This document shows, piece after piece, positions 6,681-22,452 of a DNA stretch of 64,000 bases (its first letter is position 1; every line of letters starts with the position of its first letter). Origin of the DNA: Deltaproteobacteria bacterium (GTDB lineage: Bacteria > Lernaellota > Lernaellaia > JACKCT01); assembly GCA_020845895.1 (NCBI GenBank), contig JADLEX010000057.1, positions 62,001-126,000 on the forward strand, given 5' to 3'. The position numbers were made by a program, and so were the translations under genes. The notes under the pieces are model-generated. The model made no database searches, was not told the DNA's origin, and was given only the letters and a program-made list of their open reading frames with translations.

Positions 6681-8441
6681 TCAGTTGGTCCGGCGCTTCA
6701 TGGACTTCTCGTATCGATAGAGACTGTTGAAGGTCCGTGACGCCGCGAGCAGGTTGAGGGCGACGACACGAACCGCTGCCGCGATCCCCATGGCGACCAC
6801 CGCGAACAGCACCCAACGTCCGATGGTTCCGGCTCCCGACGACGCGATCTCCCGAACCAACCGCGCATCGGCCGGCAATCGTTTCACGACATCGTCGAAT
6901 TCGGGGAGCTTGGAAATATCCGCGATCCGGGATGCGCGGTCCAGCAACGCCGTCGCCTCGTCGGTTTGCCCCTGATCCAAATATTTCCCCGCCTCTCGGA
7001 CCATGGGCGCGGCGATGTCGAGCAATGCGGCTTCCCGCCACTCTCCGGCGAAATGAGCGAACCGCCCCTGGCCGATCGCGTTCATCCCGCGATCCTCGAT
7101 CCGAACACCGCGAATCACCTCGCCGTGCCGATCCCTGCACAGCTCGATCCAGCGGGCGCGCTCGGCGAAATCGCCGCCCGCGGCGGCGAGGGCGGATTCC
7201 GAACACACGGCCCCCCGTTCGAGGGCCGAGACGCACCCGAGGGCTGCAAAAATGCCGCCCAATTCGCCGACCCCCGACCGATCACTCGACACGAATGGCT
7301 TGCTCGTGAGCAACGCCTCCATGACGGGAGACGAACGGCCGGAACCGGCGGAATCGCTCTTGACCCGCTCGACGAGATCCGCCGCAGCCCGGTTCGCGAG
7401 CCCGATGTCGGTCGAAGAAAACGCCATGACGCGATCGTATCCCCAAAGGACCCAGAATTCGCGCCCATCGTCGCCCGCATCCGGGCTTGCACGATCGGCG
7501 TACCGTTCCCGCAGCATCCGGGCGATCGGCCGATCGACGTCGTCCAGCGTCCGCAGGGCGATCGCGCGGTCACCGTCCAATTCGCGCATGTCCGCAAACC
7601 GTTTCGCGGTGATGGCGATGCCGGCCCAGATCCACGCCGGATCGAAATCGAACCTCTCGCCGATTTGCATGACCTCGACGCAGTCGGCCGCGGCGCGACG
7701 CCCGTAAATGCCGCAGAGTCGATCCGCGATCGTTGCGGCGTTTCTCCATGCCTCGAATGCCAGGGCGCCGTTTTGCGCGGCCAGTCCGGCCACCCCGACG
7801 GCGTGGAAGGTTGCGACCTGCGCCCTCAGGGATTCCCGATCCTCGGGCGTTTCCAGAAGGATCCCGGATGCCCGGTTCAGTTCGCGCGTCGCCCTTTCCA
7901 CGTTTCCCGCACGAAGTTCCGCAAGACCGAGATTGTAAAAGATCGGCCAACGATCGTCGTGCTCGCGACCTCGGGCGATGCCGTCGAGGATCGCGGCGCA
8001 TGATCTGAACGACTCGGTTGCGGATCGGCCGTCGTGCGGGCCCAGCTCTCGAAGTCCGGTCTCGCAGGCGCTTTTCGCCTCGTGGAAACGGCGAGCCGAG
8101 GCCGGCTTCTTCACGCGAAACGTCCTCGCCACGCCCTCCTGCCAGATCATCGCCGGCGGCGGGGGTTCGGCGGTGGGCGAGCCTGGATCGAGGGCGGCGA
8201 TCAGCGATGCGGTCTCGAAGGCCCTGAGCATGCGGGTCTCCGAGACCTCCGACTCCACGATCGCGCCCTGCGTCATGGTGTCCGCCTCGATCTTCCGTCG
8301 TTCGGCGTCGTCGTACTTCGGCACGATCAACAACCACGCCGCGAACGAGAGAACCGCGAAAACGAGCAGGGAACCGAGCGTAATCGCCGTCGCCGGCGGC
8401 AGAAATCGGCCCGGACCGAATAGTCGTTTGCTTCGTGACAT
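6681..8441 (-). CDS. Membrane protein with helices at both ends and a TPR-like middle (operon gene 10)
   Basis: The 586-residue protein has one membrane helix near 17-40 and another near 541-566. The large region between them is helical and rich in A-x-x-x-L/A-G patterns (for example IFYNLGLAELRAGNVERATR, about 168-187) that resemble tetratricopeptide repeats. A short Arg/Lys-rich tail follows the second helix. With both helices spanning, the middle would lie in the periplasm. No catalytic motif is seen. It is the last gene of the ten-gene operon, 43 bases after the GTPase gene. A sensor or scaffold across the membrane is a plausible role, by position only. I do not recognise a named family. 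Confidence 0.65.
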   Translation of the reverse strand: MSRSKRLFGPGRFLPPATAITLGSLLVFAVLSFAAWLLIVPKYDDAERRKIEADTMTQGAIVESEVSETRMLRAFETASLIAALDPGSPTAEPPPPAMIWQEGVARTFRVKKPASARRFHEAKSACETGLRELGPHDGRSATESFRSCAAILDGIARGREHDDRWPIFYNLGLAELRAGNVERATRELNRASGILLETPEDRESLRAQVATFHAVGVAGLAAQNGALAFEAWRNAATIADRLCGIYGRRAAADCVEVMQIGERFDFDPAWIWAGIAITAKRFADMRELDGDRAIALRTLDDVDRPIARMLRERYADRASPDAGDDGREFWVLWGYDRVMAFSSTDIGLANRAAADLVERVKSDSAGSGRSSPVMEALLTSKPFVSSDRSGVGELGGIFAALGCVSALERGAVCSESALAAAGGDFAERARWIELCRDRHGEVIRGVRIEDRGMNAIGQGRFAHFAGEWREAALLDIAAPMVREAGKYLDQGQTDEATALLDRASRIADISKLPEFDDVVKRLPADARLVREIASSGAGTIGRWVLFAVVAMGIAAAVRVVALNLLAASRTFNSLYRYEKSMKRRTN

Positions 8442-8484
8442 GGCTCATCCGTGTCGTCGTTCGGCAAAGGCCGTAACGATCGCG

Positions 8485-9732
8485 TCAGAGACGCACCGGC
8501 TTCCAGTGCGACTTGTGGAACCACTGATGAAAACGCATCAGATCCACCGTCGGCAGGGTCGCGCGACCGGGACGTGTGGAGGTGATGTAGTCCAGCGCGG
8601 GCAAAACGCCGATGTCGTCGTCGGGGTATAGGTGCCGGTCCTCCTTGCGAAAGGACTGCACGAAGTCGAACTTGAAATGCCGGACGTTCATGCGCATGAG
8701 GTTGTAAATGTCCTCGGCGTTGCGCATGGCGAACTCGGTCGGGTTCGGCGGATTCGGGTTCAGGCTGTATCTGCGTTCGTCCGTGCCGCGAATCCACCCG
8801 ACGCTCTCCAGTCGATCCGCTTTGGAGAACAGGATCAGGAACGGCGCTCGAATCCTTGGGCACTCCTTGGCGATATTCCAGATGTTGTTTCGGGTCAGAC
8901 CGGCGGAGGACAGCTCGATCCGGTCGAGAATCGCCGCCCGGATGAACGACACCGCATCGCGGAACAGGTCGAACTGCTGCTGAATGTTCTCTTTCGCGAC
9001 AATGTCCACGAGGTCCACCATCATGACGAACCCGCGGCATTGTTTTGCCCATCGCTGAAAGAATCGGTACGAGTCCTTCGCGTGCTCCGGGTTCAACATC
9101 AGTTTCCCGAATGCCTCGCCCGCGACGTCGATGAAGTGCCGCCCGCCGAACGAGAACAGATTGGCGTCGTCGGCCTGTGTGGGCGCCACGCTGTCGATGC
9201 TTGGGATTGCGTAGATCAGCTCCTGCTCGGCCTCCGTGAACGGAACTCCGGTCAATTTTGCGTGACGCAAACGGGCCACCGCCATCAGGGTCGTCTTGCC
9301 CGACTGCGACGTGCCAAGAACGCCGTAGCACTCGTCGCCGCCGGCGAGGGCGGCCTCGATCTCGGGAATCGTCCTTTCCCACGGCAGCCGTTCGTGCGTT
9401 TCCTGCACGGGCGAAACGGTCTCGACCGGAGGCGCCCATCGAGGCAGGGGATCGATTCTCGAAGACCTCGGCACCGGGTCCGGCAAAACCGGGACCTCGA
9501 ATTCCTCGACCCTTGACGACTGCTCCGCGACATCGGCGGCTCTGCCGGCGCGGTATTCGTGGTCGACACCCGCGCTCCCGTCGTCGCCGTCATGGCCGCC
9601 GTCGGATCCGTTTTCGTCTTCCCCATCTCCGTCGCTGTCGCCGTCGTTCTCGTCCGTTTCCATTCTCATGTCCCACTCACCGGGAGCCGATTCGAATGGC
9701 GATTCCGGCGTCCCGGGTTTTTTCCTTGTCAT
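8485..9732 (-). CDS. P-loop GTPase, DO-GTPase-like (operon gene 9)
   Basis: This 415-residue protein starts at the ATG at 9732, which overlaps the TGA of the upstream gene (ATGA) and follows GGAGGAGC at a good distance. Earlier in-frame codons lie inside that gene and are rejected. Residues 27-58 are an Asp/Gly-rich, disordered acidic tract. The GTPase domain shows a Walker A motif GTSQSGKT (140-147), a Walker B-like hhDVAGE (202-206) where classical GTPases have DxxGQ, and SKAD (303-306) in place of NKxD, which gives guanine specificity. This layout fits TRAFAC GTPases and, from memory, the double-GTPase (DO-GTPase) families of bacterial conflict systems. The coupling to the GAP1-like gene fits that pairing. 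GTPase: confident; subfamily: probable. Confidence 0.8.
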   Translation of the reverse strand: MTRKKPGTPESPFESAPGEWDMRMETDENDGDSDGDGEDENGSDGGHDGDDGSAGVDHEYRAGRAADVAEQSSRVEEFEVPVLPDPVPRSSRIDPLPRWAPPVETVSPVQETHERLPWERTIPEIEAALAGGDECYGVLGTSQSGKTTLMAVARLRHAKLTGVPFTEAEQELIYAIPSIDSVAPTQADDANLFSFGGRHFIDVAGEAFGKLMLNPEHAKDSYRFFQRWAKQCRGFVMMVDLVDIVAKENIQQQFDLFRDAVSFIRAAILDRIELSSAGLTRNNIWNIAKECPRIRAPFLILFSKADRLESVGWIRGTDERRYSLNPNPPNPTEFAMRNAEDIYNLMRMNVRHFKFDFVQSFRKEDRHLYPDDDIGVLPALDYITSTRPGRATLPTVDLMRFHQWFHKSHWKPVRL

Positions 9733-12700
9733 GACGCTCCTCCTGTCGTGAAGAGATCGCGGCGCATGAGATCGAGCCGCGCGCGCTCCAGCGGCGACTC
9801 GCTCACCGTTTCGACACGCAATTCGTTTCCGTCGAGACGCGGTGCGCCCGCCAGGTCGTGCTCCCGGACCGGACGGTTCGCGGCCACCTCGAACGCTTTG
9901 GAGATTCTCTCCCCGGTCGATTCGATCGCTTGATGCCGAATGAACGAACGGTCGATATCCTCCCAGCGGAAAGACATTCGTCGGACGGCGTGCCACGGAG
10001 CGTGTTGCAATATCTGAACGACGACGCGTCCGAGGGCGGGCTGACAGCCGAGAACCTCAGGCGAACGCATTAGATCGTCGATCGCACCGTGAATCTCGGA
10101 TCGTCGTCGCGGCGACCCGACACCGGGTGAGCTCCCGCCGAGGGGATCGACGCCGACCAGGTCGCGGACAAAGAGATCAAAGGTTTCCGCCGCCCAGGTT
10201 CGATCCCGGTATCGGCGCGCGGCGACGTCGATGCCGAGTACGCGAAAAGTATTCGCGCACGGCGTATCCACGAGCCGCAACTGCGCGAGCAGCGTCCGAA
10301 AGTTTCCCGCGGCCATGCCCGACGAGGGACCGCGCGCGCCGCTCCCGAGCTGACCGATGATGTCCCCGAGCGTGGTTTTCAGCGCGATCGTCCCTTCCCG
10401 CGTGTCGCCGCACGACAGCCTCCATCGCCACATCGCGAGGTCTTCTGCGAGGGAAGCCGCTCGCCCTTCGTCAAGCGCTCCGGTGTCGGAGAGCGAATAA
10501 CGGGTTCGCGCGATCAGAAAAGGTGAGAAGTGTTTCCAGCCCGTGGTGTCCTGTCTGAAGACCGTGCGGCACCGGTGCTTGACGACATCCCAGACGTCAT
10601 TTTCCGCGAGCGCGGCGCTGCCGGCGATCACCTCGCAGATCCACGGCAGGATCGCTGGGTCCCCACGGGTCAACCAGTCCTCGACGAAGACGCAAAACGC
10701 TTGACCTTTCAGGCGGCGCGCGAGCGTTTTCACCTTCTCCCGCTCCTCCCGGGGGGAGCGGCTGACGGAGAATGGCCCCCGCAGAATTCGCGTGGCGAAC
10801 AGAGCGCCGAACCCTGTCAGATGCGCGGACGACGCCTCGGCACTCCGCAATCGGACCTGCTGTTCCGGCGTCAGTCGCGCGATCAGCCGCTCCAGGTGGT
10901 CGAGCGCGCCACACACGCGATCGTCGGTCGGATGGCTCCCCTGCAGCCACGTCCGCGCATCGTCTTCGACGACCGTTGACGACAGCGGGTGCATCCCGAC
11001 GGCGTCGCGAAGTGCGTCCTCGATCTCGGGCGATCGTTCCACCGAACACGTCCAATAACGTCGCGCGAGATCGAGGATCGTTTTCGTCCCAACGTCCGCA
11101 TCGAAATCCAGCAAATTCCCGGCGAGGCGAATGAGCAGATGCGCCGCCTCGACGGGATTCGCATACGTAGTGCGGTCGCCAAAGAACCCGTTCGCCGCGT
11201 CCTTCGCGAACTTTCGCACGCGCTCGTCCCCGAGCCACTTCGATTCGGGCCGGAGTCGTCGGAGGAGTTCGACAACCGATTCGCCGCTGATGAACGCCGA
11301 GTCCAGATCGTCGATCTGCGTTTCGAGCGGAGCGAGAGCCGCCTGGACGTCCCGAAAGCGGCGCGTCCAATAGTCCAGCGGTGTCAGGATGTCCTTAAGG
11401 AGCAGGGCGTCGGCGACCACAACCGCGGCGTCCCCCGTGTCGCGACGCAGGTGCGGAAAAACGCGATCGAGGAACCCCGGTTCCTCGCGCTCCCGTTGGC
11501 CGAGCGCGTCGATGTACCGAAACGCGGCTTCGTGACCGACCGCCGCCAGTCGGCCGATGGCCATGGCCGCGACGCGGCGCAGTCGCTCGGAATCGGTGGC
11601 GGCGAGTCGTTCGCCCCACTCGGCCAAGCGGTCCGGTCCGACAACTTCGACGAAAATCGGCACCGCGCCATCGGAAAAAGAAGTCCCTCCGCGACGCACC
11701 AAGATCGGTTCGAGTTCGAAGAGGACCTCGAGAAGCGCAAGGCGTTCGCGGTCATCGGCCCGGCGAATCCGCGTCCCGATCGAAGTGACGCAGATTTGAA
11801 GGAGCGGCAAATCGACGTGTTCCCCGATCCGCGCGACTTTATCGCCGCCGACGATCGGCCCCCAGTCCGGCGTCGACACCTCGTCGTGCGTCCCAACGTC
11901 GCCGTCCCCCGAAACGGCTGCGGAATGGCCGAGCACCAACGCCTCGGAGAGTCTCGGCCACGCCGCGTCGAGCCAGCCGAACGGAGCACCCGCCTCGGAG
12001 TTCCAGGCGACCGCGAAAGCCTCGCGCACCTTTGGAATGTCCCCGGGTTTGGTCGCGGCGGCATCGAGCAGCGCGTGACAGCGGATCAGCGTTCGTGCGG
12101 CCCGGCGTCGCTCGTCGTCGGCCAGCAACGAAACCGTCGCACCGGCCGTGGACACGATGGAGTACAGGCGCGCGGGCCGCTTCACGCGCTCGGCCGCCTC
12201 TCCCTCACGCGGCCATCGCGCGAGGCCGAACGATTCGGCCAGCCATTCACGCATGTCGTCGTCGAGCGGTGGTTGGTCGTCGTCGCGTTCGGGGAGAGGC
12301 CGGATGGCGGAACCCGCGGTTTTCGCGACGGCCTTCACACAGTTCGACGGGCTCCACGCGAAGCCCGGTTCGAGCGGAAATTCCGCGCAGGCGAAGGTGT
12401 CGTACGCCAGCCGGCCGCGATCGGCTGGGGGAAGGACCAGAGCGGCGTGCGCGGCGACGATCGCGTCGCAGTCCAAGTCGCAGAGCAACACGGTCCCCGT
12501 CGCGGATGCCGCGCGCGCGATTCGTTCCGCGAGGATCGCCGTCGTGACCGGATCGGACTTCCACCATTCCCCGAGCTGCCAGCGACGGGCGGACTCGTCC
12601 GTAATTCCCGCCGGCAGGTGAAGGAGGAACCGGGATGCCTCTCCCAGAGCGTGCGTACGGGTGAGCAGATCCTGGCAGGTGATGCGCGGGCCCGTCGCTC

Positions 12701-13070
12701 CCGATTCGGACACCGGCGCGAGTTCGACGCCCTGCGCCAGCAGCAGTCGGGGGTTGAACCCGAGCCGCGACGCCGTCTCCGCGATCAGGACCAGCGCGAC
12801 GCAAGCGATCCGGTGATTCGGCCCCTCGCCACGACGGCCGACACTGCGACGAACGGAAAATACGTATCGGCGCTCGTCGAACCGTCGAAACGCCCAGGCG
12901 TTCCCGTTCGGTTGCGCCTGAATAGCGCCTCCCACGCCCGATCGTCGCTCCAGCGCACGGACATCCGCACTGCCTAGACCGGCGGACGCGGCCACCGTCT
13001 GGTAGCCCGGCACGCGCGCGTTCGGCGGAGCGTCGTAGCTCCAGATGTCGATCAGTTCGGCTTCGGGCAT
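9729..13070 (-). CDS. Large GAP1-like GTPase-associated protein (operon gene 8)
   Basis: The 1113-residue protein is predicted cytoplasmic, with no signal peptide or helix. I chose the ATG at 13070: the longer reading frame would run 157 bases into the preceding gene, and homology-like sequence begins just after it. Residues 10-130 (SYDAPPNARVPGYQTVAASA, later FRRFDERRYVFSVRR and NHRIACVALVLI) resemble the N-terminal domain of GTPase-associated protein 1 (GAP1-N), recalled from conflict operons where it sits beside a DO-GTPase. The remaining 950 residues are mostly helical with no motif I can name; they may correspond to the GAP1 middle and C-terminal regions. The stop overlaps the GTPase start by four bases, so the two are translationally coupled. 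Family call rests on recall of the pattern and needs a profile search. Confidence 0.6.
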   Translation of the reverse strand: MPEAELIDIWSYDAPPNARVPGYQTVAASAGLGSADVRALERRSGVGGAIQAQPNGNAWAFRRFDERRYVFSVRRSVGRRGEGPNHRIACVALVLIAETASRLGFNPRLLLAQGVELAPVSESGATGPRITCQDLLTRTHALGEASRFLLHLPAGITDESARRWQLGEWWKSDPVTTAILAERIARAASATGTVLLCDLDCDAIVAAHAALVLPPADRGRLAYDTFACAEFPLEPGFAWSPSNCVKAVAKTAGSAIRPLPERDDDQPPLDDDMREWLAESFGLARWPREGEAAERVKRPARLYSIVSTAGATVSLLADDERRRAARTLIRCHALLDAAATKPGDIPKVREAFAVAWNSEAGAPFGWLDAAWPRLSEALVLGHSAAVSGDGDVGTHDEVSTPDWGPIVGGDKVARIGEHVDLPLLQICVTSIGTRIRRADDRERLALLEVLFELEPILVRRGGTSFSDGAVPIFVEVVGPDRLAEWGERLAATDSERLRRVAAMAIGRLAAVGHEAAFRYIDALGQREREEPGFLDRVFPHLRRDTGDAAVVVADALLLKDILTPLDYWTRRFRDVQAALAPLETQIDDLDSAFISGESVVELLRRLRPESKWLGDERVRKFAKDAANGFFGDRTTYANPVEAAHLLIRLAGNLLDFDADVGTKTILDLARRYWTCSVERSPEIEDALRDAVGMHPLSSTVVEDDARTWLQGSHPTDDRVCGALDHLERLIARLTPEQQVRLRSAEASSAHLTGFGALFATRILRGPFSVSRSPREEREKVKTLARRLKGQAFCVFVEDWLTRGDPAILPWICEVIAGSAALAENDVWDVVKHRCRTVFRQDTTGWKHFSPFLIARTRYSLSDTGALDEGRAASLAEDLAMWRWRLSCGDTREGTIALKTTLGDIIGQLGSGARGPSSGMAAGNFRTLLAQLRLVDTPCANTFRVLGIDVAARRYRDRTWAAETFDLFVRDLVGVDPLGGSSPGVGSPRRRSEIHGAIDDLMRSPEVLGCQPALGRVVVQILQHAPWHAVRRMSFRWEDIDRSFIRHQAIESTGERISKAFEVAANRPVREHDLAGAPRLDGNELRVETVSESPLERARLDLMRRDLFTTGGAS

Positions 13071-14041
13071 GGATTCGGAGGGGTTGTGAGCTTGCGATCC
13101 TTTTCCTTCGGCTTCCAGAGGTCGTCCGTAGAAGTCGAAATTTGGGACATGATTATAATCCGACGAAAGTCGGCCGTTCCAGGAAGGACTTTTTCGTAAC
13201 CGATGCAACGCTTCTGAATTTGTTGTCGAAAATATTCAACCGCATGCCCCATTCGGCCCGACCAGTTATCTTTATTTATTTGACTGGGGTTAAGAGATTT
13301 TTCTAAACCGTGAACAACTACACTATAGATGAGTTTTTCGAAATCTTCTATTTTCAGTTCATCTGACTTCAAATCCACGATCCCACTACCACCCTTTGAC
13401 AAATTATTCAATTTGTCATGTTGATCGCCGTCAAACAAATAAGTTCTATTCGTTTGGCCATATACCTGATGAAATATAATGTACGACAACGTCTCCGCGT
13501 TTATATTTTCAAAAAGCCATTTCCGAAATTGCCCTTTCAGATCGGGAGTGTCAGACTCACTGAGCAAAGTGGAAGTGCCTTCCCGCTTTTCAGACTCAGT
13601 CTTGGCGTTGCTTTCACGCGAGACTTCACTTCGTCCGACATCGTAAGTTCTTTCATCGCTATCTTCTGCTCCTGAGCCTGCAATAGATTGCCTGGGCTGA
13701 ACTCCTGGATTCCACCTCTCCTGCATAATCATCCAAAAATTGAAAACACCAAGCCCCAGAAGGCTGATGACGAATGATAGCTGCACGAAAGGAGAGACAC
13801 GGGACCACCAAGCACCTTTCCTTTCTAATTCACTGCCAACATTTTTCTGATAGTACCTTCCAATTTCGTCTCTGACGATGCGTGGAATATCCTTAACGAC
13901 TTGATTGCACGACATGCGTATTTCGTCGTCGATCCTGGCGACGCATTCATCTAGACGACCGGCGGCGGACTCCAATCGTCGAAGTTTCCTTTCGAAATCG
14001 TCGTCCACCGGCTGTGTCACTTCAAATTCTTCGTTAGACAT
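13052..14041 (-). CDS. AT-rich membrane protein of unknown function (operon gene 7)
   Basis: The 329-residue protein has a charged, coiled-coil-like N-terminus (1-70), one membrane helix near 83-107 (FVQLSFVISLLGLGVFNFWM), a Ser/Glu-rich linker (115-165), and a C-terminal globular part (170-310) ending in a basic, Pro-rich tail. No enzyme motif is visible. It is clearly unlike its neighbours in base use: hand counts of three 60-base stretches (13261, 13381, 13441) give 32-40% G+C, with many A/T-ending codons. The rest of the operon is G+C-rich. It sits in frame with the operon order, 16 bases after the gene before it and overlapping the GAP1-like gene by 19 bases. It may be a recently acquired or exchangeable component. 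Function unknown. Confidence 0.75.
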   Translation of the reverse strand: MSNEEFEVTQPVDDDFERKLRRLESAAGRLDECVARIDDEIRMSCNQVVKDIPRIVRDEIGRYYQKNVGSELERKGAWWSRVSPFVQLSFVISLLGLGVFNFWMIMQERWNPGVQPRQSIAGSGAEDSDERTYDVGRSEVSRESNAKTESEKREGTSTLLSESDTPDLKGQFRKWLFENINAETLSYIIFHQVYGQTNRTYLFDGDQHDKLNNLSKGGSGIVDLKSDELKIEDFEKLIYSVVVHGLEKSLNPSQINKDNWSGRMGHAVEYFRQQIQKRCIGYEKVLPGTADFRRIIIMSQISTSTDDLWKPKEKDRKLTTPPNPCPKPN

Positions 14042-14057
14042 TTCCGTGCCTCCTTAA

Positions 14058-14609
14058 TCAATTTCCCTTCATCACCGCGATCACAAATGGCAGCACATCG
14101 TTCCAGCCCCACTCCGGCGAGGTGTCCGGATAGAGCGTCTCCCGAAGCTGCTCCGCGCGGCGATCGAGCCGGGCGAAATCGACGATCGACGGGGCGAGCC
14201 GCTCGTCCAGGAAAAACGCCGTCATGTCATTGGTGAGCAGGGGGATCTTTCCACCTTCGGCATGTTCGCGAATCATCCACGCGAAGATCCGCCGGTCGAC
14301 CTCCTCGACGCCGTGAACCGCTGTTTCTCGCAGCAACTCGCACAGGGGCAGTGAGAGCCCCGATTCACAACGACTCAGGACCGACATCGTCCCGTCGCGA
14401 ATCGCGGCGGACATCGTTGTCGGCTGATATCGCACGTACAGCGAACGCAGAAGCAGATCCCGTTCGCGGCTTACGCGGGTCAGTTCCCGTTCGGGCGATG
14501 ACTCGCATCGCGCGTTCATGGCGATGACTCCGAGAATCAACGCCACCGCGGCCGCGCCGCAGACGGCGATGACGATCGACTCGGGATCTCGGCGGCGTTC
14601 GTTGCGCAA
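14058..14609 (-). CDS. Small single-helix membrane protein (operon gene 6)
   Basis: The 183-residue protein has a basic start followed by a membrane helix near residues 12-31 (IVIAVCGAAAVALILGVIAM). The remaining 150 residues are charged and helical and would face the periplasm. Cys residues at the helix end and at about 81 and 89 could form disulfides. I see no known domain. It lies 12 bases after the vWA gene stop and 16 bases before the next gene, firmly inside the operon. A structural role in a membrane complex is an inference from context only. Confidence 0.65.
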   Translation of the reverse strand: MRNERRRDPESIVIAVCGAAAVALILGVIAMNARCESSPERELTRVSRERDLLLRSLYVRYQPTTMSAAIRDGTMSVLSRCESGLSLPLCELLRETAVHGVEEVDRRIFAWMIREHAEGGKIPLLTNDMTAFFLDERLAPSIVDFARLDRRAEQLRETLYPDTSPEWGWNDVLPFVIAVMKGN

Positions 14610-14621
14610 GGGCGTCGTCTC

Positions 14622-16067
14622 CTACTCAACCTCGAGGGCGTAATTGACGGAGGGGCAGCGAGCGTTCAGTCCGGCTTGGCCCAGAGCCTCGACCACTCGG
14701 TCGAGATAGAGCGTTCGACCGAGGTTTTCCGGGCGCGTGTCGTCGTCCGTGGACCATTGTCGCCACCAGACTTCCGGCGACGCGGAGGGTCTCGCGTGAA
14801 AGATCGCTTTCGTCGCGAACGGCGGATCGGCTCCGCCGCCACGGTCGGGCACTCGGGAACAGTCCACCTTCAGCAGGATCCGCGACTCCCGATCGACGAG
14901 CGCAACGACGTCCTGCTCCTGTTTGTCGAACGCCAATTCGGTCTCCAATTCGCGGAAAAGGTTCTGCACGTTCGGAAACGCCGACTCGCCGTTAAAGCCG
15001 AACGTTCCGGCGACCGGCGTATACTTCTCTCCTTTTCGATTGACGCAGATCAGCCGATGTCGCAGCGTCCGCGGCTCCGGCGCTTCCAACTGTTTCGTGA
15101 TGAGCGGCCATTCGCCGGCGGCGAGCTTGAATCCGGAATGCCGCGTGGCGCGAAAGCGGCATTCGGGCATCGGGGCGAACTCGACCGCGTGAATCTCGGA
15201 TTCGACGTCGGGATCCACGGTCGCGAGCCTGTTCGCCGAGTCTTGGAGATCGACAACGACCTGGTTGACGAAACGCCGCCCGGCGTCGGGATGATTTGCG
15301 ACGACCCAAATGTACGCGGGACGGAAAACCCGTGTGCCGGGAGGCGGGTCCACGACGACATGATGACCGTTCACATCGAGCCGCTCCGAGGGGATCGGAC
15401 CGACCAACTCGCTGCGGAACGCCACGAGCCAAAGGCCGCGTCCCTCGCCCAGCACCCGGCGATCCACCGCGTCGATCAGGCATCCATAGTCGTTGCCCCG
15501 CACGCAGCTCGCGGCGGCGCCCTCGGTCGAGGCGACGTTGCGAAAAGTAACCGACTGCGTGCCGTCGGTGACGAGGACGAGCAGGTCGTATTCGGCCGGA
15601 TCGACCTTCTCGAACACATCGGCCAGCCGCGTACTTCCGCCGTCGAACGTGCGGTTGCGCTCGAAGTCGGTGTCCGGCAGGGCGTATTCGCGGAGCGACG
15701 CGATCGGTTTTGGGACGCTGAATTCGCCTCCGATCGACGACATCATCGGTTCGCGAACACCTCCGAAGGCGCTCATGTCGTTGAGCAGGTGCTCGGCGAG
15801 GTAGAGTTGGATCACCGTACGCCGATGACGCCGGTCGGACCCAAAATACGAGCGCATGCTCTGCGAGGTATCGAGCACGATCAGAGCGTTGCCCGCGGGC
15901 GGCGAAGATTGCGCGTTCTCGACATAAAGGGGGACGTCGAAAGTCTTCGGGAGCGGCGGCGTCCGCGGACCGCCGCAGGCGGCGAGACAGGCCGCGAAAG
16001 CGACCAACGCCGGACATCGGGCAAAACGCGGGAGCACCTTCCGCGGGACTGCGACATCAGTGCACAT
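14622..16067 (-). CDS. von Willebrand factor A domain lipoprotein (operon gene 5)
   Basis: The 481-residue protein begins with a signal peptide whose lipobox LAAC places the lipidated Cys at residue 31. The vWA domain starts at about 60. Its metal-ion-dependent adhesion site is complete: DTSQS (66-70), the Thr in the GGSTR loop (about 146), and TDGT (167-170). A C-terminal half of about 250 residues has several Cys and beta-like segments and no motif I recognise. vWA domains bind partner proteins through a Mg ion. The lipid anchor puts this one outside the inner membrane, unlike the cytoplasmic GTPases of the same operon. The start overlaps the preceding stop by 11 bases. vWA: confident; partner: unknown. 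Confidence 0.85.
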   Translation of the reverse strand: MCTDVAVPRKVLPRFARCPALVAFAACLAACGGPRTPPLPKTFDVPLYVENAQSSPPAGNALIVLDTSQSMRSYFGSDRRHRRTVIQLYLAEHLLNDMSAFGGVREPMMSSIGGEFSVPKPIASLREYALPDTDFERNRTFDGGSTRLADVFEKVDPAEYDLLVLVTDGTQSVTFRNVASTEGAAASCVRGNDYGCLIDAVDRRVLGEGRGLWLVAFRSELVGPIPSERLDVNGHHVVVDPPPGTRVFRPAYIWVVANHPDAGRRFVNQVVVDLQDSANRLATVDPDVESEIHAVEFAPMPECRFRATRHSGFKLAAGEWPLITKQLEAPEPRTLRHRLICVNRKGEKYTPVAGTFGFNGESAFPNVQNLFRELETELAFDKQEQDVVALVDRESRILLKVDCSRVPDRGGGADPPFATKAIFHARPSASPEVWWRQWSTDDDTRPENLGRTLYLDRVVEALGQAGLNARCPSVNYALEVE

Positions 16068-16857
16068 TCACGACGCCCTTGTTGGTGACCTTCCACCTGC
16101 CGTCCGGTCCCCTCTCCACTTCAGACAGGGAGACCAATTCGTTGACGTAAATGTCCGCATTCCCGGACGGAGGATGCCGGTCGTACCATTCGACGATTTC
16201 GGAGCCGTGACCGCTCGGTCGTGGAATGCAGACGCTGCGCTGACGATGGTCTCCGGCGAGACCCACGAAGATCGCTGCCCACGATTCGATCGATTTCCTG
16301 ACGTCCGACAAGGCAAGGTTCATCCGTATGCGATCGTTGAAGATCTTGAATGCGTCTTCTCCGCCCGCGGCCTTCTTCAACTGCTCGCGCTGGGAATCCC
16401 AGACTTCTTTCATTCGAACTCTGAGTTCACCGAACAACGCGTCGAAATCGATCGGTGGCTGCTCGTGGGCCACGTCCGATTCCCGAACCATCGCGCCGGC
16501 CGCCAAGGAACCGGGAGAGCGCTGTTCAAGGGAACGAAGCCGTTCCTTCAAACCTCGGATAGCGGTCTCAGTTCCGAAATTTGCTGTCACGCACTCGCGG
16601 ATCTGCCGCTCGACGTCATTCACCCTAAACAAACTCGCACTCTTCGCTGCCGCCTGTTCCGCCGAGGAAATTCGGGAAATGACGTCGTTCAGGTTCTGTT
16701 CGATTCTCTGGAACCGCCGATCAATGTCGCCGTCACCTGTGGTCGGCATTCGCCAACGTCGATACAGATCGTGCAGAATCCAAACGAGCACCACCGCATA
16801 CGCAAGCACTCCCGTTGCGCCGATGGCGAGCATGAGGATCGAAAGCGCGGCGTTCAT
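16057..16857 (-). CDS. Membrane-anchored coiled-coil protein (operon gene 4)
   Basis: The 266-residue protein starts at the ATG at 16857, forming an ATGA overlap with the stop of the Hsp70-like gene; upstream in-frame codons are rejected. A membrane helix spans about 4-28. Residues 40-115 have the heptad pattern and low Gly/Pro content of a coiled coil (RRFQRIEQNLNDVISRISSA and onward). Residues 125-266 look globular and begin with IDFDALFGELRVRMKEVWDS. No catalytic residues are evident. The topology (short outside, coiled coil inside or the reverse) cannot be fixed. Its coupling to the Hsp70-like gene suggests a membrane tether for that ATPase. Confidence 0.65.
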   Translation of the reverse strand: MNAALSILMLAIGATGVLAYAVVLVWILHDLYRRWRMPTTGDGDIDRRFQRIEQNLNDVISRISSAEQAAAKSASLFRVNDVERQIRECVTANFGTETAIRGLKERLRSLEQRSPGSLAAGAMVRESDVAHEQPPIDFDALFGELRVRMKEVWDSQREQLKKAAGGEDAFKIFNDRIRMNLALSDVRKSIESWAAIFVGLAGDHRQRSVCIPRPSGHGSEIVEWYDRHPPSGNADIYVNELVSLSEVERGPDGRWKVTNKGVVNVH

Positions 16858-19800
16858 TTCGTTCCCGACAGCGCCCGATCCCTCGCGATACTGCTGTAGT
16901 GCCACTTGAGATGAGGCAGGTAGTACCGCGTGAGAAAAATCTTCAAAGGGCTTTCGAACAGCGTCGTCTTGCCGTGTACGGAGTTGTCGAAAAAGACCGG
17001 AATGTCGCTTCCGAACTGCTGCGCCATTCGTTCGTCGATGTGCAGGAACTCTTCACAGTTTCGGAATCGCTCGCGAAGGACTGCCGCATCGACCGTAACC
17101 GTCGGAGCTGATGTCTCGATCACAGCCGGAACGCGATCGTTTTCGTGAAGGTCGCGGTCCGCGATCCGGACGGGGAGCCCGATGACCGAACATACGCCCG
17201 ACCTCGGCGACAGGGGCCACTGGGGGTTCATTCGTCGGTTTGCCCCGGTCTGAAGGGCCCGAAGCGCTCCGATGGCGGTCGTGGCCTTCGTGTTCAGCGT
17301 CCGGTCCGTCGGCCCGGAGACTTCGATATCGTACGTCCGGCCGCCGTCCATTCGCGCATTCAGATTCGATTGAATGTCGGGGTAGATGGTGTCGAGCGAC
17401 GAGAGACCGCGCCACATCCGCCAACCGTTGCCGAGTGCGTGGACGTGAATCTTCTTGGCGTGTTGACCGCCGTCGAAGGTGTCCCATGCGCGAATGAGGG
17501 AGGTCACGTATTCGAGAATGCCGTTGAAAAAATGATAAATCGCCTGTTCGAGGATGTCACGGGCCGACTTGTCCGGGAGGTTTTTTACCCAGGGAGCGCC
17601 CGACTGAATCCACTCTCGCGTCAGGGCCATTCGCAACATCTGGTCGATGCGGTTGTCGTCGTGTTCATTGTCCTTCACGACGCCGTCGAGATGTCGTCTG
17701 ATGGTGTTCCATCGCGACTGCGCCGCCGCGGGCATCGCGTGTTTGTCGGCCAGGATTTCGACGAGGTCATCTCCACCAAATCGAAGGCTGTCGATGAAAA
17801 ACAGCTTGTCGGGATTGAGAAAGAACGCGATGTCGGTGGTGCCACCCCCCACGTCGATCACGACGTGGCGGGAATCATCTTCGGATCCCGCCGAACCCAA
17901 CGCTCCCGCCCGGGACTCGTCGATCATGTCCGCGCGCGTGAGGGAGATCCCCGTGACGTCGCTGATCTCTTTCTGGATGTCGTCCCACGCCTTCACGTAT
18001 TCGGCGCGCATGGACTCGTCGAAAGCCAATGGGAACGTCACGACCGCGGACACCGATTCGCAGTGGTCTCTGGCCACCAGACTCGCGACCACCAGTTCCA
18101 GAATTCCCGTCAGGTATTGGACGATGAATCGGGCGCGGGCACTGTCCCACCCGAACAATTCGTTCTCCATCGTCCACTTGAAGTTGGTGACGTAGCGTCG
18201 GCGAACCGCCTTGTCCGCCTCGGTCGCCGTGAACGACTCGTCGCCCGCGTCCTGTTGCGGCAACAAGTACGCGATCCTCGGGTTTCGGATCGTGAAAGCG
18301 TCGAGCGGTCGGTCCAAATCGGGAAGTTGGATCGTGGGACGATGGAACACGAGTTCGGACGGGAAGGTTTGGGGCGCCGGGCGAAAACGGGTGAGACAAA
18401 GCCATCGCCGCGTACTTTCGACCACGGCGCGCGCCGTTTCGTCCGCGTCGAGCGATTCACCGGTAAAGGCGTCGTAACTGAGTTCAAGATAACCGGGAGT
18501 CGTTTCCTTGGTCGAATCCACCGCCACGTACGTGTTCGATGTGCCGAAATCGACCGCGATTCGACGCAGGGCCCCAGGGATTTTCTTGATCTCGGGAACA
18601 TACGAATCCGGAATCCGAAAGTACCCGGTTTCGGCATCTTGAACGTCGTTTCGATCCGGTCGCCACTCCATTCCGAAGTAGCTGGGTATGAACCCCATCC
18701 TTCGCGCGGGGGCGCTGTGCATTTGGCCGGTGGTTCTTTCGTCCGTCGGCAAATCGGAAACGAATGTGGTGGTTGCGCGATCCTCGCCCACGAGCCAGAT
18801 GCGCGGGTGGTTTTCGTGCAGCGCAGTCTGCGTGAATAGGGCGTAATGGAGGTTCCAACCCTCGACTCGGAACCTCGGCCAGAGTGTGAGGCGTACGTTG
18901 TATCCATCATCCCCTTTGACCGGCAGTGTCACGCGCTTGTCGCCCGTCATCCCCTTCAAGCGGAACCGATAGGCGGCTGTCGAGCCGGTCGGCTGCGTGC
19001 ATTCGCTGGATTCGACGATCGGAAGGTATTCGCGATAAAATGGCAGGTCCGGGAGACGAGTTCTGCCCGGCGGGCCAAGGCGTACGACATGGGGAACTAG
19101 AGTGTCTTCCGGTTTGAGAATTCTTCCCCGAACGATGACCACGAACTTGCCGATGTGATATGCCACCTGCTGTTGACCGGGATCGGGGGCCACACGTACG
19201 AAGTGCGGCGGTCGCCAGTCGGGATCGTTCCAGATCAGGAATTCCTTGCGTCCATTGCGTTCGAGTAACGCGAGTCCTCCGGGCAGCACAGACTCCCATG
19301 CGTGACGACTCCCGCACACGCACGGCACGCTCGGCGCCGCGCCATGGATGACCGGGGCTTCCGTGTGCTGGATATCCAACAGGTTCTTCACGCATTTCGG
19401 GCAGTAAAAGATGTGCCCAATGAACTGCGGAATCCGCGATCCCGGCGGCGTGGAGCGCAGCAGATCCGGATTGGCCGGCGGGATGATGGTGCGCGACTCG
19501 ACCCAATTTCGCGCCAGTTCGGACACGATCCGGAGCGCGTTGACGTCCTCGACGAGCACGCTCTGCGCCATCGCCCTCGCCCACTCATCGAAGATCCACG
19601 CCGCCCGGGTTTCCAGATTTTGGTGCTCGTGCGCGTCCGTTCGATGTTTGTAGTCGTCCAGGAGCTTCACGACCGCGGCGTCGATGTCGGCGATGTCGCG
19701 GGCTTCGAGATTCGGGGTTGGAAACAGAAATGTGGGATCGTCGGCGACGGCGACGACACGGCGATCCCACGAGTAGAGCACGAGGTGGGTCTTCCCCCTT

Positions 19801-20144
19801 CGCCTCGGATCCTGCCCGATCAGTTCGCCGAATACGCCGAGCCGCCCGATCGGAATCTCCGTCACGTCGAGCACGCCGAGAAACGCGGCGCGCACGAGCG
19901 TTTCGAGCTGCGTGCGAGCGGCTATATGCTCCGGCTTGGTCACGGGGAGCCGAAGAGCCCACTGAAACATGAACTGGCGCGCGTAAATCGCCGGAATGCC
20001 AGTGGGGTCAAGCCCATCGTGCGGCATCAGAATCGATTCGATGTTCTGCGGGTCGATCCGATTGCGTCCAGGATCGTTGAATACCGGCCACTCCCGATCG
20101 GGATCGGGCAGGACGGGGCGGATCGCACTCGCATGTCCGTTCAT
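16854..20144 (-). CDS. Hsp70-like ATPase with long zinc-knuckle N-terminal extension (operon gene 3)
   Basis: The 1096-residue protein starts at the ATG at 20144 behind GGAG at seven bases. Its C-terminal half is an actin/Hsp70-fold nucleotide-binding domain: phosphate-1 motif DFGTSNTY (532-539), connect-1-like ESRAGAL (743-749), and phosphate-2 motif DVGGGTTD (764-771). There is no DnaK-type substrate-binding domain after it. The first 520 residues are an extension with a zinc-knuckle pattern, CPKC at 248-251 and CVC at 275-277, and otherwise no family I recognise. Normal DnaK is about 640 residues, so this is a specialised member. It probably hydrolyses ATP to drive a conformational switch. 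It lies 23 bases after the tubulin-like gene and overlaps the coiled-coil gene by four bases. Confidence 0.8.
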   Translation of the reverse strand: MNGHASAIRPVLPDPDREWPVFNDPGRNRIDPQNIESILMPHDGLDPTGIPAIYARQFMFQWALRLPVTKPEHIAARTQLETLVRAAFLGVLDVTEIPIGRLGVFGELIGQDPRRRGKTHLVLYSWDRRVVAVADDPTFLFPTPNLEARDIADIDAAVVKLLDDYKHRTDAHEHQNLETRAAWIFDEWARAMAQSVLVEDVNALRIVSELARNWVESRTIIPPANPDLLRSTPPGSRIPQFIGHIFYCPKCVKNLLDIQHTEAPVIHGAAPSVPCVCGSRHAWESVLPGGLALLERNGRKEFLIWNDPDWRPPHFVRVAPDPGQQQVAYHIGKFVVIVRGRILKPEDTLVPHVVRLGPPGRTRLPDLPFYREYLPIVESSECTQPTGSTAAYRFRLKGMTGDKRVTLPVKGDDGYNVRLTLWPRFRVEGWNLHYALFTQTALHENHPRIWLVGEDRATTTFVSDLPTDERTTGQMHSAPARRMGFIPSYFGMEWRPDRNDVQDAETGYFRIPDSYVPEIKKIPGALRRIAVDFGTSNTYVAVDSTKETTPGYLELSYDAFTGESLDADETARAVVESTRRWLCLTRFRPAPQTFPSELVFHRPTIQLPDLDRPLDAFTIRNPRIAYLLPQQDAGDESFTATEADKAVRRRYVTNFKWTMENELFGWDSARARFIVQYLTGILELVVASLVARDHCESVSAVVTFPLAFDESMRAEYVKAWDDIQKEISDVTGISLTRADMIDESRAGALGSAGSEDDSRHVVIDVGGGTTDIAFFLNPDKLFFIDSLRFGGDDLVEILADKHAMPAAAQSRWNTIRRHLDGVVKDNEHDDNRIDQMLRMALTREWIQSGAPWVKNLPDKSARDILEQAIYHFFNGILEYVTSLIRAWDTFDGGQHAKKIHVHALGNGWRMWRGLSSLDTIYPDIQSNLNARMDGGRTYDIEVSGPTDRTLNTKATTAIGALRALQTGANRRMNPQWPLSPRSGVCSVIGLPVRIADRDLHENDRVPAVIETSAPTVTVDAAVLRERFRNCEEFLHIDERMAQQFGSDIPVFFDNSVHGKTTLFESPLKIFLTRYYLPHLKWHYSSIARDRALSGTK

Positions 20145-20167
20145 GGCGGATCTCCGGTTTCAGGAAT

Positions 20168-21670
20168 TCAGGCGCCTGCGCGAACGATGCCTTCCAGCGC
20201 CGTTTGAAATACCGATTCGATCTGATTCGCCAGCGCTTCCACGTTGCGGATCTGGGGCGTGCGGGCGTCGCCGATCTTCAGGCCGCCGTCACCCCGGAAC
20301 GCATCGTGGAAAAACGTGGTCGGAAATCGCTGATAATCCTCGAACTTCGATCCGCGCGGTCGCAGATCGTCGCGCGTGAATTCGAGAAACCGCTCTCGCT
20401 GGATCCCCTCGCGAGACTCGCCCTGCGGGGCACGCGGACCGCCGAAAAGCCAGTCCATGACGCTTTTGTAGTGCTTGAGTCGCGCCTCGACGACGCCGCG
20501 AAGACGCCCGATGACCGCGTCTTTGCTAGTGCCGGTTTCCCGTGCAATCCGTTCCACCGCGAGCCGGAGTCGCGCGGGCACGACGCGGTTGGGGAAAAAA
20601 TCGAGGGTCGTGGAGGGCAACGGAGACAGGAACTCTCGAAAACTGCGCATCATGCTTTCGCGGCCGATGAACACGGTGATGGCCTTGCCGAACGCAATTG
20701 CGGGCGCGTCGTTTCCCAGTCCCTTGCGAACCGGATAGTCGAGCAGATCCGCGCCGTTCTCTTTTTTCCAGTACGACATGAAATTCCCGGTCCCCAGTGC
20801 GTCTCGCACGGTCGGCGCGGAATCCGCCGACAGGCTCTCGTGCGCCATCAGAGCGGCCAGCAGATTGATGGGATGCTGATGCTCGGGCTGATCCCGATAG
20901 GCGCGTGAATAGACCCGCTCCTCGAAGTCCGATCGGCCCAAAAACACAAATTCGTCGATCCCTCGCCTAAACTCGTCGCCGTAGTACGCGAGGCCGCCCT
21001 CGGAGTTGCGGATCAACTGCTCGTGTCGGATCGTCGGTTCGCCCTGTTGAGCGGGATGCTCCGAAACTCGAAGTTGGAACCAGGGCATCAGGCACAGCAC
21101 GGACACGCGGTTGTGCGTGGGCGCCAGTCGTTTGAAGTATCGGGCGAACGTCGGCATGACGCCGGCGCCCGTTCCGCCGTAGTTCGAGCCGACGAACGCC
21201 ACCGATTTCGTCTCCTGGCGTTTGAGAGCCTCCGACACGTTTTTGAATTCGACGTCACCGCCGAAGTCCGCGGCGTTCTCGACCAGATGGATCTTTTTCG
21301 CGGCGATCGCGCTGGCGATGGCAGGAAGACCGAAAAATCCGTGATGCGGGTCGCCGTTCAACTCATCTGCCGAGTAGAATGCGCGAAGAACCAGGTCGAT
21401 TTCCTCGGCGCCGCCATCCGCCAAAACGCGCGCGTTGGATGAATCCTGCCGCGCGAGATGCGGAAACGGCACGATGTGCGGAGTTCCTTCGCCCCGCTCG
21501 CGGCCGGTCAGATTCGCGTACAGCGCGATCGACTCTGTGAGCGGCCCCGAAACATCGGCGTCGATGACGTAGAACGGCGCCGGCTTGAACCCGGCGATGA
21601 ACGCGAGGCGCAGGTAATTCAGCAGGACGGTCTGACCGGTGCCGCCCACGGCAAAAAAATAACAACTCAT
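20168..21670 (-). CDS. Tubulin-like GTPase (operon gene 2)
   Basis: This 500-residue protein has the glycine loops of the tubulin/FtsZ fold: GGTGQ at residues 9-13 at the end of the first strand, and the tubulin signature in the form NYGGTGAG (163-170). The first strand, SCYFFAVGGTGQ, and the spacing of these loops fit the bacterial tubulin-like family (Pfam Tubulin_2, from memory) and not cell-division FtsZ, which is shorter and has GGGTGTG. It would bind GTP and may polymerise or act as a switch. The ATG at 21670 overlaps the stop of the upstream gene (ATGA). The C-terminal third (340-500) is helical and basic and has no clear match. Fold: confident; polymerisation: unknown. Confidence 0.8.
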   Translation of the reverse strand: MSCYFFAVGGTGQTVLLNYLRLAFIAGFKPAPFYVIDADVSGPLTESIALYANLTGRERGEGTPHIVPFPHLARQDSSNARVLADGGAEEIDLVLRAFYSADELNGDPHHGFFGLPAIASAIAAKKIHLVENAADFGGDVEFKNVSEALKRQETKSVAFVGSNYGGTGAGVMPTFARYFKRLAPTHNRVSVLCLMPWFQLRVSEHPAQQGEPTIRHEQLIRNSEGGLAYYGDEFRRGIDEFVFLGRSDFEERVYSRAYRDQPEHQHPINLLAALMAHESLSADSAPTVRDALGTGNFMSYWKKENGADLLDYPVRKGLGNDAPAIAFGKAITVFIGRESMMRSFREFLSPLPSTTLDFFPNRVVPARLRLAVERIARETGTSKDAVIGRLRGVVEARLKHYKSVMDWLFGGPRAPQGESREGIQRERFLEFTRDDLRPRGSKFEDYQRFPTTFFHDAFRGDGGLKIGDARTPQIRNVEALANQIESVFQTALEGIVRAGA

Positions 21671-22188
21671 TTTTCTTCTCCGATGGAGGAGATTCCCCGA
21701 CCCAAGAGACCCAGAATCCAGTAAACCGCGTAAATCGCGAACCCGCCCAACAGAAGGGGGAGGAGCAGGATTGTCCCTGGCATGTTGTTGAACATCATCC
21801 AGCGGGCAAAATCCGGCATGCTTGTCGCTTTACAGCCCGAAAATTCGATCAGGCGCCAAAAACTGACGGCCACCGCGAAGGCATTCCACATCCAAAGCAT
21901 CGGAGTGAAGTGCCGCCAGAGATCGTCCTTGTCCGACGCAAGATCGTTCTCTCCGAAACGATAGGGGCGCATTCGTTTTGCGAAGACGAACGCCAGCGCC
22001 ACCGCCAGACCCGCGCAGACAAAGACCAGCGAGCCCAGCAGCACCGGCGACCTGGCGCCCGCGGAGTTGCATACGTTCTCGTCGATGGGCGGCGCAAGGG
22101 AAGGAAACCATCGTTCCACTCCGGATGCGAAGATCGCCAGCAAAAGACAGAAAAATCCAACGACAAATACCGTCGATTTTCGAAACAT
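21667..22188 (-). CDS. Four-helix membrane protein (operon gene 1)
   Basis: The 173-residue protein starts at the ATG at 22188; GAGG lies seven bases before it, which is better than the in-frame TTG at 22191. Hydrophobic helices are near 4-22, 47-68, 93-113 and 133-157, with a periplasmic loop after the first helix containing a Cys. No enzyme motif is present. It is the first gene of the ten-gene operon and its stop overlaps the start of the tubulin-like gene by four bases. A membrane anchor or channel for the complex is possible; this is inference from position. Confidence 0.65.
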   Translation of the reverse strand: MFRKSTVFVVGFFCLLLAIFASGVERWFPSLAPPIDENVCNSAGARSPVLLGSLVFVCAGLAVALAFVFAKRMRPYRFGENDLASDKDDLWRHFTPMLWMWNAFAVAVSFWRLIEFSGCKATSMPDFARWMMFNNMPGTILLLPLLLGGFAIYAVYWILGLLGRGISSIGEEK

Positions 22189-22222
22189 CAAAAGACCTCG
22201 TGAAGATTTGCCTGTCTTTTTT

Positions 22223-22251
22223 TACTTAACCCTCAACGCGGAACCTGTCAA
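22223..22251 (-). promoter_or_regulatory. Candidate promoter of the ten-gene operon
   Basis: A perfect TTGACA (22251-22246) on the minus strand is followed after 17 bases by TAAGTA (22228-22223), a poor -10 box. It lies 35 bases before the first ATG. A strong -35 with a weak -10 could mean an activator is needed. The flanking DNA is A+T-rich. Confidence 0.35.
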
Positions 22252-22326
22252 CATAAAATTTTTTCCACAACGCGATGAATTAGGATTGCCATAATCTAGT
22301 CGATCACCTAATAATATATTTATGAA

Positions 22327-22452
22327 TTGCGATAGCTCACAAGCTGAGCGAAGTTATTTCGACATAACATATCAAGACTTCGCGGCGTCTCTTCCCGGAG
22401 GCGCGAAGAGGCTTGAAAGATCTTTCGGGGCTTGTGATGTTCTCTATCGCAA
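22327..22452. repeat. Inverted repeat pair upstream of the ten-gene operon
   Basis: TTGCGATAG, two bases, CACAAG (22327-22343) recurs inverted as TTGCGATAG, seven bases, CACAAG on the minus strand (22452-22431). The right arm overlaps the stop codon of the PAP2 gene. Between the arms lie a perfect 12-bp palindrome GAAAGATCTTTC (22415-22426) and two shorter 5-bp inverted repeats (22335-22349 and 22353-22368). The 22189-22443 interval holds no gene. The repeats may be regulator sites or the scar of an insertion boundary. Confidence 0.45.

What the first reader, a model, noticed from the sequence alone, without database searches (positions are those of the whole stretch)
6681..22188. Ten-gene operon joining a tubulin-like GTPase, an Hsp70-like ATPase, a vWA lipoprotein, a GAP1-like protein and a P-loop GTPase
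Seen: ten leftward genes over 15.5 kb with gaps of 43 bases or less and several 4-base overlaps, holding three different nucleotide-binding folds (tubulin GGTGAG at 165-170; Hsp70 DFGTSNTY and DVGGGTTD; Walker A GTSQSGKT) plus five or six membrane or lipid-anchored partners. Known: from memory, DO-GTPase/GAP1 modules and tubulin-like proteins occur in GTPase-centred conflict systems of social and filamentous bacteria. Inference: this is one membrane-spanning sensor-effector machine, possibly antiviral or signalling, and this full combination may be undescribed.
Basis: partly seen in the sequence, partly recalled or inferred. Interest (0 to 1): 0.92.

Follow-up and report, generated by a model that had tools for sequence, protein, structure and literature searches.

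The report
Tubulin/actin-like envelope machine with GTPase switch
This ten-gene bacterial operon joins a tubulin-like protein and an actin/Hsp70-like ATPase to membrane and surface proteins and a GTPase switch; its five-gene core recurs across distant bacteria, plasmids and a phage genome, so it is probably a mobile, membrane-anchored conflict (possibly anti-phage) machine with exchangeable parts.

Summary
The ten-gene operon is real. Genes g1-g5 are the window's copy of a conserved core: vWA lipoprotein, small 3-TM protein, tubulin-like GTPase, ~1100-aa actin/Hsp70-superfamily ATPase, TM coiled-coil protein. I recovered this core at 21 other loci: Bacteroidota, cyanobacterial plasmids, several unnamed phyla and one phage contig. 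Profiles built without the window recover g2 (7e-25), g3 (4e-39) and g5 (1e-15). In 12 of the 21 loci a ZorA/ZorB-like motor pair follows, three of them with a staphylococcal-nuclease gene next to it. The window has no motor; instead g9 is a DO-GTPase-type P-loop GTPase, g8 is probably a GAP1-like partner, and g6, g7 and g10 were found nowhere else (g7 is a low-GC newcomer).

The parts were described before: FtsZ-like/vWA/GTPase/OmpA operons (Makarova and Koonin 2010) and DO-GTPase/GAP1 systems with tubulin or HSP70 (Kaur et al. 2020). What I did not find described is the constant tubulin-like plus actin-like pair, its link to a Zorya-type motor, and this one-operon combination with DO-GTPase. 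I judge it a new variant of a known kind, most likely an envelope-anchored conflict system; its function is untested.

The parts
21667..22188 (-). g1: 173-aa protein with 3 TM segments; positional counterpart of the small 3-TM core protein
   Evidence: TM prediction; sits directly before the tubulin-like gene as in relatives; profile E only 0.014
20168..21670 (-). g2: 500-aa tubulin/FtsZ-fold GTPase (core)
   Evidence: leave-one-out profile 7.4e-25; T1 GGTG and T4 GGTGAG loops; top PDB fold matches all FtsZ/CetZ/tubulin despite low pLDDT
16854..20144 (-). g3: 1096-aa actin/Hsp70-superfamily (ASKHA) ATPase with a ~530-aa N-terminal extension (core)
   Evidence: leave-one-out profile 4.3e-39; phosphate motifs DFGTSNT and DVGGGTTD conserved; PDB profile hits MreB, Hsp70, FtsA
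16057..16857 (-). g4: 266-aa N-terminal TM protein, positional counterpart of the TM coiled-coil adaptor (core)
   Evidence: TM 1-32; position after g3; profile E 0.003
14622..16067 (-). g5: 481-aa vWA lipoprotein with MIDAS DTSQSM (core; in relatives it usually comes first)
   Evidence: leave-one-out profile 1.2e-15, hhalign 98.3%; lipobox FAAC and DxSxS
14058..14609 (-). g6: 183-aa single-TM protein, TTG start, unknown
   Evidence: no relative found
13052..14041 (-). g7: 329-aa single-TM protein of unknown family; GC 45.5% (GC3 47%) against 56-67% in the other nine genes, probably a recent insertion
9729..13070 (-). g8: 1113-aa probable GAP1-N2-like protein with a long helical remainder
   Evidence: Pfam GAP1-N2 E 0.013, below cut-off; own small GAP1-N profile: 1 of 200 shuffles scores as high
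8485..9732 (-). g9: 415-aa DO-GTPase-type P-loop GTPase with an acidic N-terminal region
   Evidence: Pfam DO-GTPase2 4.5e-5; GTSQSGKT, DVAGE, SKAD motifs; DO-GTPase profile 3.6e-6, hhalign 93%
6681..8441 (-). g10: 586-aa protein with TM segments at both ends and TPR-like stretches between them (inferred periplasmic)
22189..22443 (-). 255-base intergenic leader with one sigma-70-like site (22342-22313)
   Evidence: consensus match only

Best explanation
The operon encodes one envelope-anchored, nucleotide-switched machine. Shown: a conserved core (vWA lipoprotein, 3-TM protein, tubulin-like GTPase, actin/Hsp70-like ATPase, TM coiled-coil adaptor) plus, in this genome, a DO-GTPase with a probable GAP1 partner and three membrane-anchored accessory proteins. 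Inferred: the vWA lipoprotein and the TPR protein g10 sense an envelope event such as phage adsorption, DNA injection or damage. The TM proteins pass this inwards. The DO-GTPase/GAP1 pair sets a threshold. The tubulin-like and actin-like NTPases then assemble at the membrane, as FtsZ and FtsA do, and block, remodel or sacrifice the site. In relatives a ZorA/ZorB-like proton motor, sometimes with a lipoprotein nuclease or protease, stands where the GTPase module stands here, which points to a conflict (anti-phage) role.
For: Core synteny at 21 loci and 0 of 11 controls; leave-one-out profiles for g2, g3, g5; correlated tubulin/ATPase distances; FtsZ/tubulin fold for g2; separate ordinary FtsZ in the genome, so g2 is accessory. 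Conflict role: ZorA/ZorB-like pair in 12 of 21 loci with TM aspartate kept; SNase beside it in three loci and a trypsin-like protease in one, all with lipobox-like signals; patchy distribution; on cyanobacterial plasmids and beside phage tail genes. GTPase switch: g9 motifs and profile.
Against: No phage challenge or any functional datum exists. The DO-GTPase/GAP1 + core combination was seen in one genome only. g8 as GAP1 is below every cut-off. No motor, nuclease or other recognisable effector lies in the window operon. g1 and g4 are core members mainly by position. The g3 model failed.
Confidence: 0.5

Rival explanations
1. A membrane-remodelling or envelope-maintenance machine, not a conflict system (the 2010 FtsZl1 proposal): the tubulin-like and actin-like proteins form membrane-attached filaments that shape membranes or vesicles, and vWA, OmpA and TPR partners couple them to the wall and outer membrane.
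For: Same component classes as the FtsZl1 operons (PMC2875224); tubulin/actin-type pair as in FtsZ-FtsA; most partners are membrane-bound.
Against: Patchy within phyla (5 of 125, 2 of 39), carried by plasmids and a phage contig, and linked to nuclease and protease genes, which fits cargo better than maintenance.
Confidence: 0.3
2. Two cassettes side by side: g1-g5 are the tubulin/ATPase/vWA system, and g6-g10 (with GAP1/DO-GTPase) are a separate system that landed in the same transcription unit.
For: No other core locus carries g6-g10 homologues, and GAP1-N2 loci in the same genome sample lack the core.
Against: Gaps of 12-16 bases and overlaps throughout. Published DO-GTPase/GAP1-N2 systems carry tubulin or HSP70 genes, and L053/L054 pair GAP1 and DO-GTPase with a Tubulin_2 protein. 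g6-g10 lie where relatives carry the motor pair.
Confidence: 0.15
3. A chaperone system: g3 works as an Hsp70 that folds or disaggregates clients at the membrane, with g9/g8 as regulators.
For: Superfamily match of g3; Kaur et al. describe HSP70/GrpE/DnaJ themes in GAP1-N2 systems.
Against: No Pfam HSP70 hit at E<=1, no GrpE or DnaJ match among the ten proteins, and MreB and FtsA match the family as well as Hsp70 does.
Confidence: 0.05

Closest known systems
FtsZl1 (Tubulin_2) operons with vWA, GTPase, OmpA; Makarova and Koonin 2010, PMC2875224
   Same: Divergent tubulin-fold GTPase next to a vWA protein, a P-loop GTPase and membrane proteins; OmpA proteins in relatives. Accessory to a normal FtsZ.
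   Different: Here the tubulin-like protein is ~500 aa, lies beside a constant ~1100-aa actin/Hsp70-like ATPase, and in relatives beside a ZorA-like as well as an OmpA/ZorB-like gene. The 2010 main text mentions no Hsp70/DnaK, MotA or TolQ partner. The window protein itself has no Tubulin_2 hit.
GTPase-centric conflict systems (DO-GTPase/GAP1-N2); Kaur et al. 2020, PMC7159879
   Same: DO-GTPase with Walker B glutamate, GAP1-like partner, tubulin, vWA, membrane proteins.
   Different: Tubulin-like and actin/Hsp70-like genes stand together, where the paper describes tubulin and HSP70 themes as non-overlapping; no FNIII protein, no GrpE, no zinc ribbon; the core also occurs without any DO-GTPase, including on cyanobacterial plasmids (the paper notes near absence of these systems from cyanobacteria).
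Zorya anti-phage system (ZorA/ZorB proton motor)
   Same: 12 of 21 related loci carry ZorA/ZorB-like genes; the TM aspartate is kept.
   Different: The window has no motor genes; relatives carry the tubulin/ATPase/vWA core, not known Zorya effector genes. Comparison with Zorya effectors rests on my own knowledge.
FtsZ-FtsA pair of the divisome
   Same: Tubulin-fold GTPase beside an actin-fold ATPase and a membrane adaptor.
   Different: Analogy only: accessory, patchy, with a separate ordinary FtsZ in this genome.
vWA proteins coupled to TolQ-type motors; PMC12204202 (2025)
   Same: vWA protein associated with a 5:2 proton-motor gene pair in the envelope.
   Different: Those vWA proteins are TM-tethered force transducers next to tolQ-like genes; no tubulin is mentioned there.

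Membership tests
FtsZl1 / Tubulin_2 system | Tubulin-fold protein with G-rich T4 loop | tested here: met
   YGGTGAG loop; FtsZ/tubulin fold matches
FtsZl1 / Tubulin_2 system | Pfam Tubulin_2 (PF13809) match | tested here: inconclusive
   none for g2 at E<=1; relative L020 1.7e-5, 24.7 bits against cut-off 27
FtsZl1 / Tubulin_2 system | vWA neighbour | tested here: met
   g5
FtsZl1 / Tubulin_2 system | P-loop GTPase neighbour (frequent) | tested here: met
   g9
FtsZl1 / Tubulin_2 system | OmpA-family neighbour (several genomes) | tested here: not met
   absent from the window operon; present in relatives
DO-GTPase/GAP1-N2 system | TRAFAC GTPase with conserved Walker B glutamate (DO-GTPase) | tested here: met
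   DVAGE in g9, aligned to four-to-five DO-GTPases; Pfam score 23.7 is under the curated 27
DO-GTPase/GAP1-N2 system | GAP1 protein with GAP1-N2 domain | tested here: inconclusive
   E 0.013 under cut-off; full-length profile negative; N-terminal profile weakly positive
DO-GTPase/GAP1-N2 system | FNIII-repeat protein | tested here: not met
   no fn3 match in any of the ten proteins at E<=1
DO-GTPase/GAP1-N2, tubulin theme | tubulin-domain gene with vWA gene(s) | tested here: met
   g2 and g5
DO-GTPase/GAP1-N2, HSP70 theme | HSP70 with GrpE | tested here: not met
   no HSP70 or GrpE match at E<=1
Hsp70 chaperone (DnaK) | HSP70 family match including a substrate-binding domain | tested here: not met
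   no Pfam HSP70; NCBIfam DnaK 0.013 over ~90 residues only; profile equally near MreB
Zorya | ZorA and ZorB genes | tested here: not met
   absent from the window; present in 12 related loci
MoxR-vWA ternary systems | MoxR AAA+ ATPase paired with vWA | tested here: not met
   no AAA+ match among the ten proteins

The most novel reading that the evidence does not exclude
A widespread, undescribed family of envelope immune machines built on a constant tubulin-like plus actin-like NTPase pair under a vWA lipoprotein, into which either a Zorya-type proton motor with a lipoprotein nuclease or a DO-GTPase/GAP1 switch is plugged. It would unite the FtsZl1, Zorya and GTPase-centric systems, with the window as the GTPase-type example.
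Probability: 0.35. Interest if true: 0.85.

Novelty: new variant of a known kind. Interest (0 to 1): 0.62.

Why it matters
It would show that bacteria run an accessory tubulin/actin-type pair at the envelope, mobile between phyla and carried by plasmids and phages, whose power or switch module can be a proton motor or a GTPase. That would make the untested 2010 (membrane remodelling) and 2020 (conflict) predictions directly testable with compact five- to seven-gene operons from culturable Bacteroidota.

Tried and rejected
The weak g9 match in relative G001 (L002/L032) is not a related operon. Eleven genome loci that matched only generic actin motifs (L016-L018, L022-L029) carry none of the core profiles and served as controls. 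The g3 model failed (pLDDT 33) and was not used. ZorA/ZorB remnants were sought in g6 and g7 and not found. PADLOC and PHROGs gave no usable match for the window proteins. GAP1-N2 loci L053-L057 lack the core profiles. Two phyla of 195 and 199 genomes searched with the ATPase profile were empty, but without a positive control there.
Full report
Observation. The ten minus-strand genes at 6681-22188 are present as described, with gaps of at most 43 bases and overlaps of 4, 4, 11, 19 and 4 bases. A 255-base AT-rich leader with one promoter-like site separates g1 from an upstream PAP2-type gene. The operon ends 8 bases from the convergent ispG/GcpE gene.

Direct family searches are nearly silent. 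Pfam gives sub-threshold matches only: DO-GTPase2 for g9 (4.5e-5), GAP1-N2 for g8 (0.013), MreB and Ppx-GppA for g3, TPR for g10. NCBIfam, PADLOC and PHROGs add no assignment. Recurrence therefore had to be tested by homology.

Recurrence. tblastn of g3 and g2 against plasmids hit the same cyanobacterial plasmid with the two genes adjacent. Two more cyanobacterial plasmids show the same order. A six-frame profile scan shows the order vWA, small 3-TM, tubulin-like, ATPase, TM coiled-coil. Tubulin-like and ATPase genes are adjacent in all 19 loci, although only the ATPase was searched for; eleven loci found only through generic actin motifs have none of the core profiles. Exceptions: L030 starts at a contig edge; short membrane genes miss the profiles at a few loci (small 3-TM in L047, coiled-coil in L043-L045, L030 and L047), though ORFs with TM segments sit in place; in L005 the vWA gene is divergent. 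Two more loci, a phage contig and a Prevotella record, came later, giving 21. Several of the 21 are close relatives (for example the Hymenobacter group), so they are fewer independent events.

Is the window a member? With profiles built without it, g2 scores 7.4e-25, g3 4.3e-39 and g5 1.2e-15 (hhalign 98.3%). g1 (0.014) and g4 (0.003) are supported mainly by position. Identity to relatives is 15-22%, so the window is a deep branch. Tubulin and ATPase distance matrices correlate at 0.97, with none of 2000 permutations as high; this includes ordinary species relatedness.

Fold. A model of g2 from nine sequences has low confidence (mean pLDDT 50), yet its best PDB fold matches are FtsZ, CetZ and tubulins. 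The ATPase profile matches MreB (2.2e-6), mitochondrial Hsp70 (5.9e-6) and FtsA (0.0018). I therefore call g3 an actin/Hsp70-superfamily ATPase, not an Hsp70. The genome has one ordinary FtsZ elsewhere, so g2 is an accessory tubulin.

Swappable modules. In 12 of the 21 related loci the core is followed by a ZorA/MotA-like and a ZorB/OmpA-like gene. ZorB-like proteins match PADLOC ZorB (6.9e-27 in L031, 6.5e-12 in L020, 8.4e-9 in L013), keep an aspartate in the TM helix, and in one group carry the EGHTD peptidoglycan motif. A staphylococcal-nuclease gene follows the pair directly in L031 and L042 and stands two genes down in L020, with a trypsin-like gene between; all have lipobox-like signals, suggesting action outside the cytoplasm (inference). 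Other loci have the bare five genes (L037, L058, L062), extra coiled-coil proteins (cyanobacteria) or an FN3-repeat protein (L030). In the window g6-g10 take this place: g9 is a DO-GTPase by motif and profile, g8 a probable GAP1, and g7 a 45% GC newcomer in an operon otherwise at 56-67%. No other core locus has DO-GTPase or GAP1. Conversely, five GAP1-N2 loci from the same genome sample lack this core; two of them carry a long Tubulin_2 or Tubulin_2-like protein beside GAP1 and DO-GTPase (L053, tested, and its near relative L054) and one a MotA/ExbB protein (L055). So GTPase modules, tubulins and proton motors have been mixed more than once.

Mobility. The system is patchy: 4 of 386 sampled genomes, 5 of 125 and 2 of 39 within two phyla, and 1 of 7 in its own phylum. 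It sits on cyanobacterial plasmids and, on contig IMGVR_UViG_3300034171_000222, next to phage tail-fibre and tail-collar genes. This pattern is typical of conflict cargo.

Mechanism. Shown: tubulin-like and actin-like NTPases, a P-loop GTPase, membrane proteins and a vWA lipoprotein encoded as one tight gene run. Inferred from charges around TM segments: g4's C-terminal part faces the cytoplasm, while g6, the C-terminal part of g7 and the middle of g10 face the periplasm. Inferred: an envelope event is sensed outside, passed through g1/g4, thresholded by g9/g8 and converted into NTP-driven assembly of g2/g3 at the membrane; relatives use a proton motor and a secreted nuclease at this step. My confidence: g1-g5 one system about 0.9; g8/g9 part of it about 0.75; conflict role about 0.5.

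Known work. Makarova and Koonin 2010 (PMC2875224) described FtsZl1 with vWA, GTPase and OmpA genes and proposed membrane remodelling. Kaur et al. 2020 (PMC7159879) described DO-GTPase/GAP1-N2 conflict systems with tubulin or HSP70 in 'non-overlapping' themes, nearly absent from cyanobacteria; the main text does not mention MotA, TolQ or Zorya. PMC12204202 (2025) describes vWA proteins tied to TolQ-type motors. I found no paper in the held library that links Zorya motors with tubulin-like and vWA genes; subscription journals and preprints could not be searched. Hence: new variant of a known kind.

Noticed in passing
window 13052-14041 (-): g7 has 45.5% GC and GC3 47% inside an operon of 56-67% GC: a foreign gene apparently inserted without breaking the operon.
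   Followed up: partly
L058:815-8116 with 8210-16008 (IMGVR_UViG_3300034171_000222): The complete five-gene core lies beside phage tail-collar and tail-fibre genes and a DNA methyltransferase, as if carried as phage cargo.
   Followed up: partly
   Followed up: partly
L020:14256-15599, L031:3986-4741, L042:4574-5314: SNase nuclease genes (and one trypsin-like gene) with lipobox-like signals close behind the ZorA/ZorB-like pair.
   Followed up: partly
window 48284-50029 (-): One ORF fuses LytB/IspH with a UbiA prenyltransferase domain, an unusual fusion of isoprenoid genes.
   Followed up: no
window 27730-29856 (-): GH123-type glycoside hydrolase catalytic domain followed by an FN3 domain.
   Followed up: no
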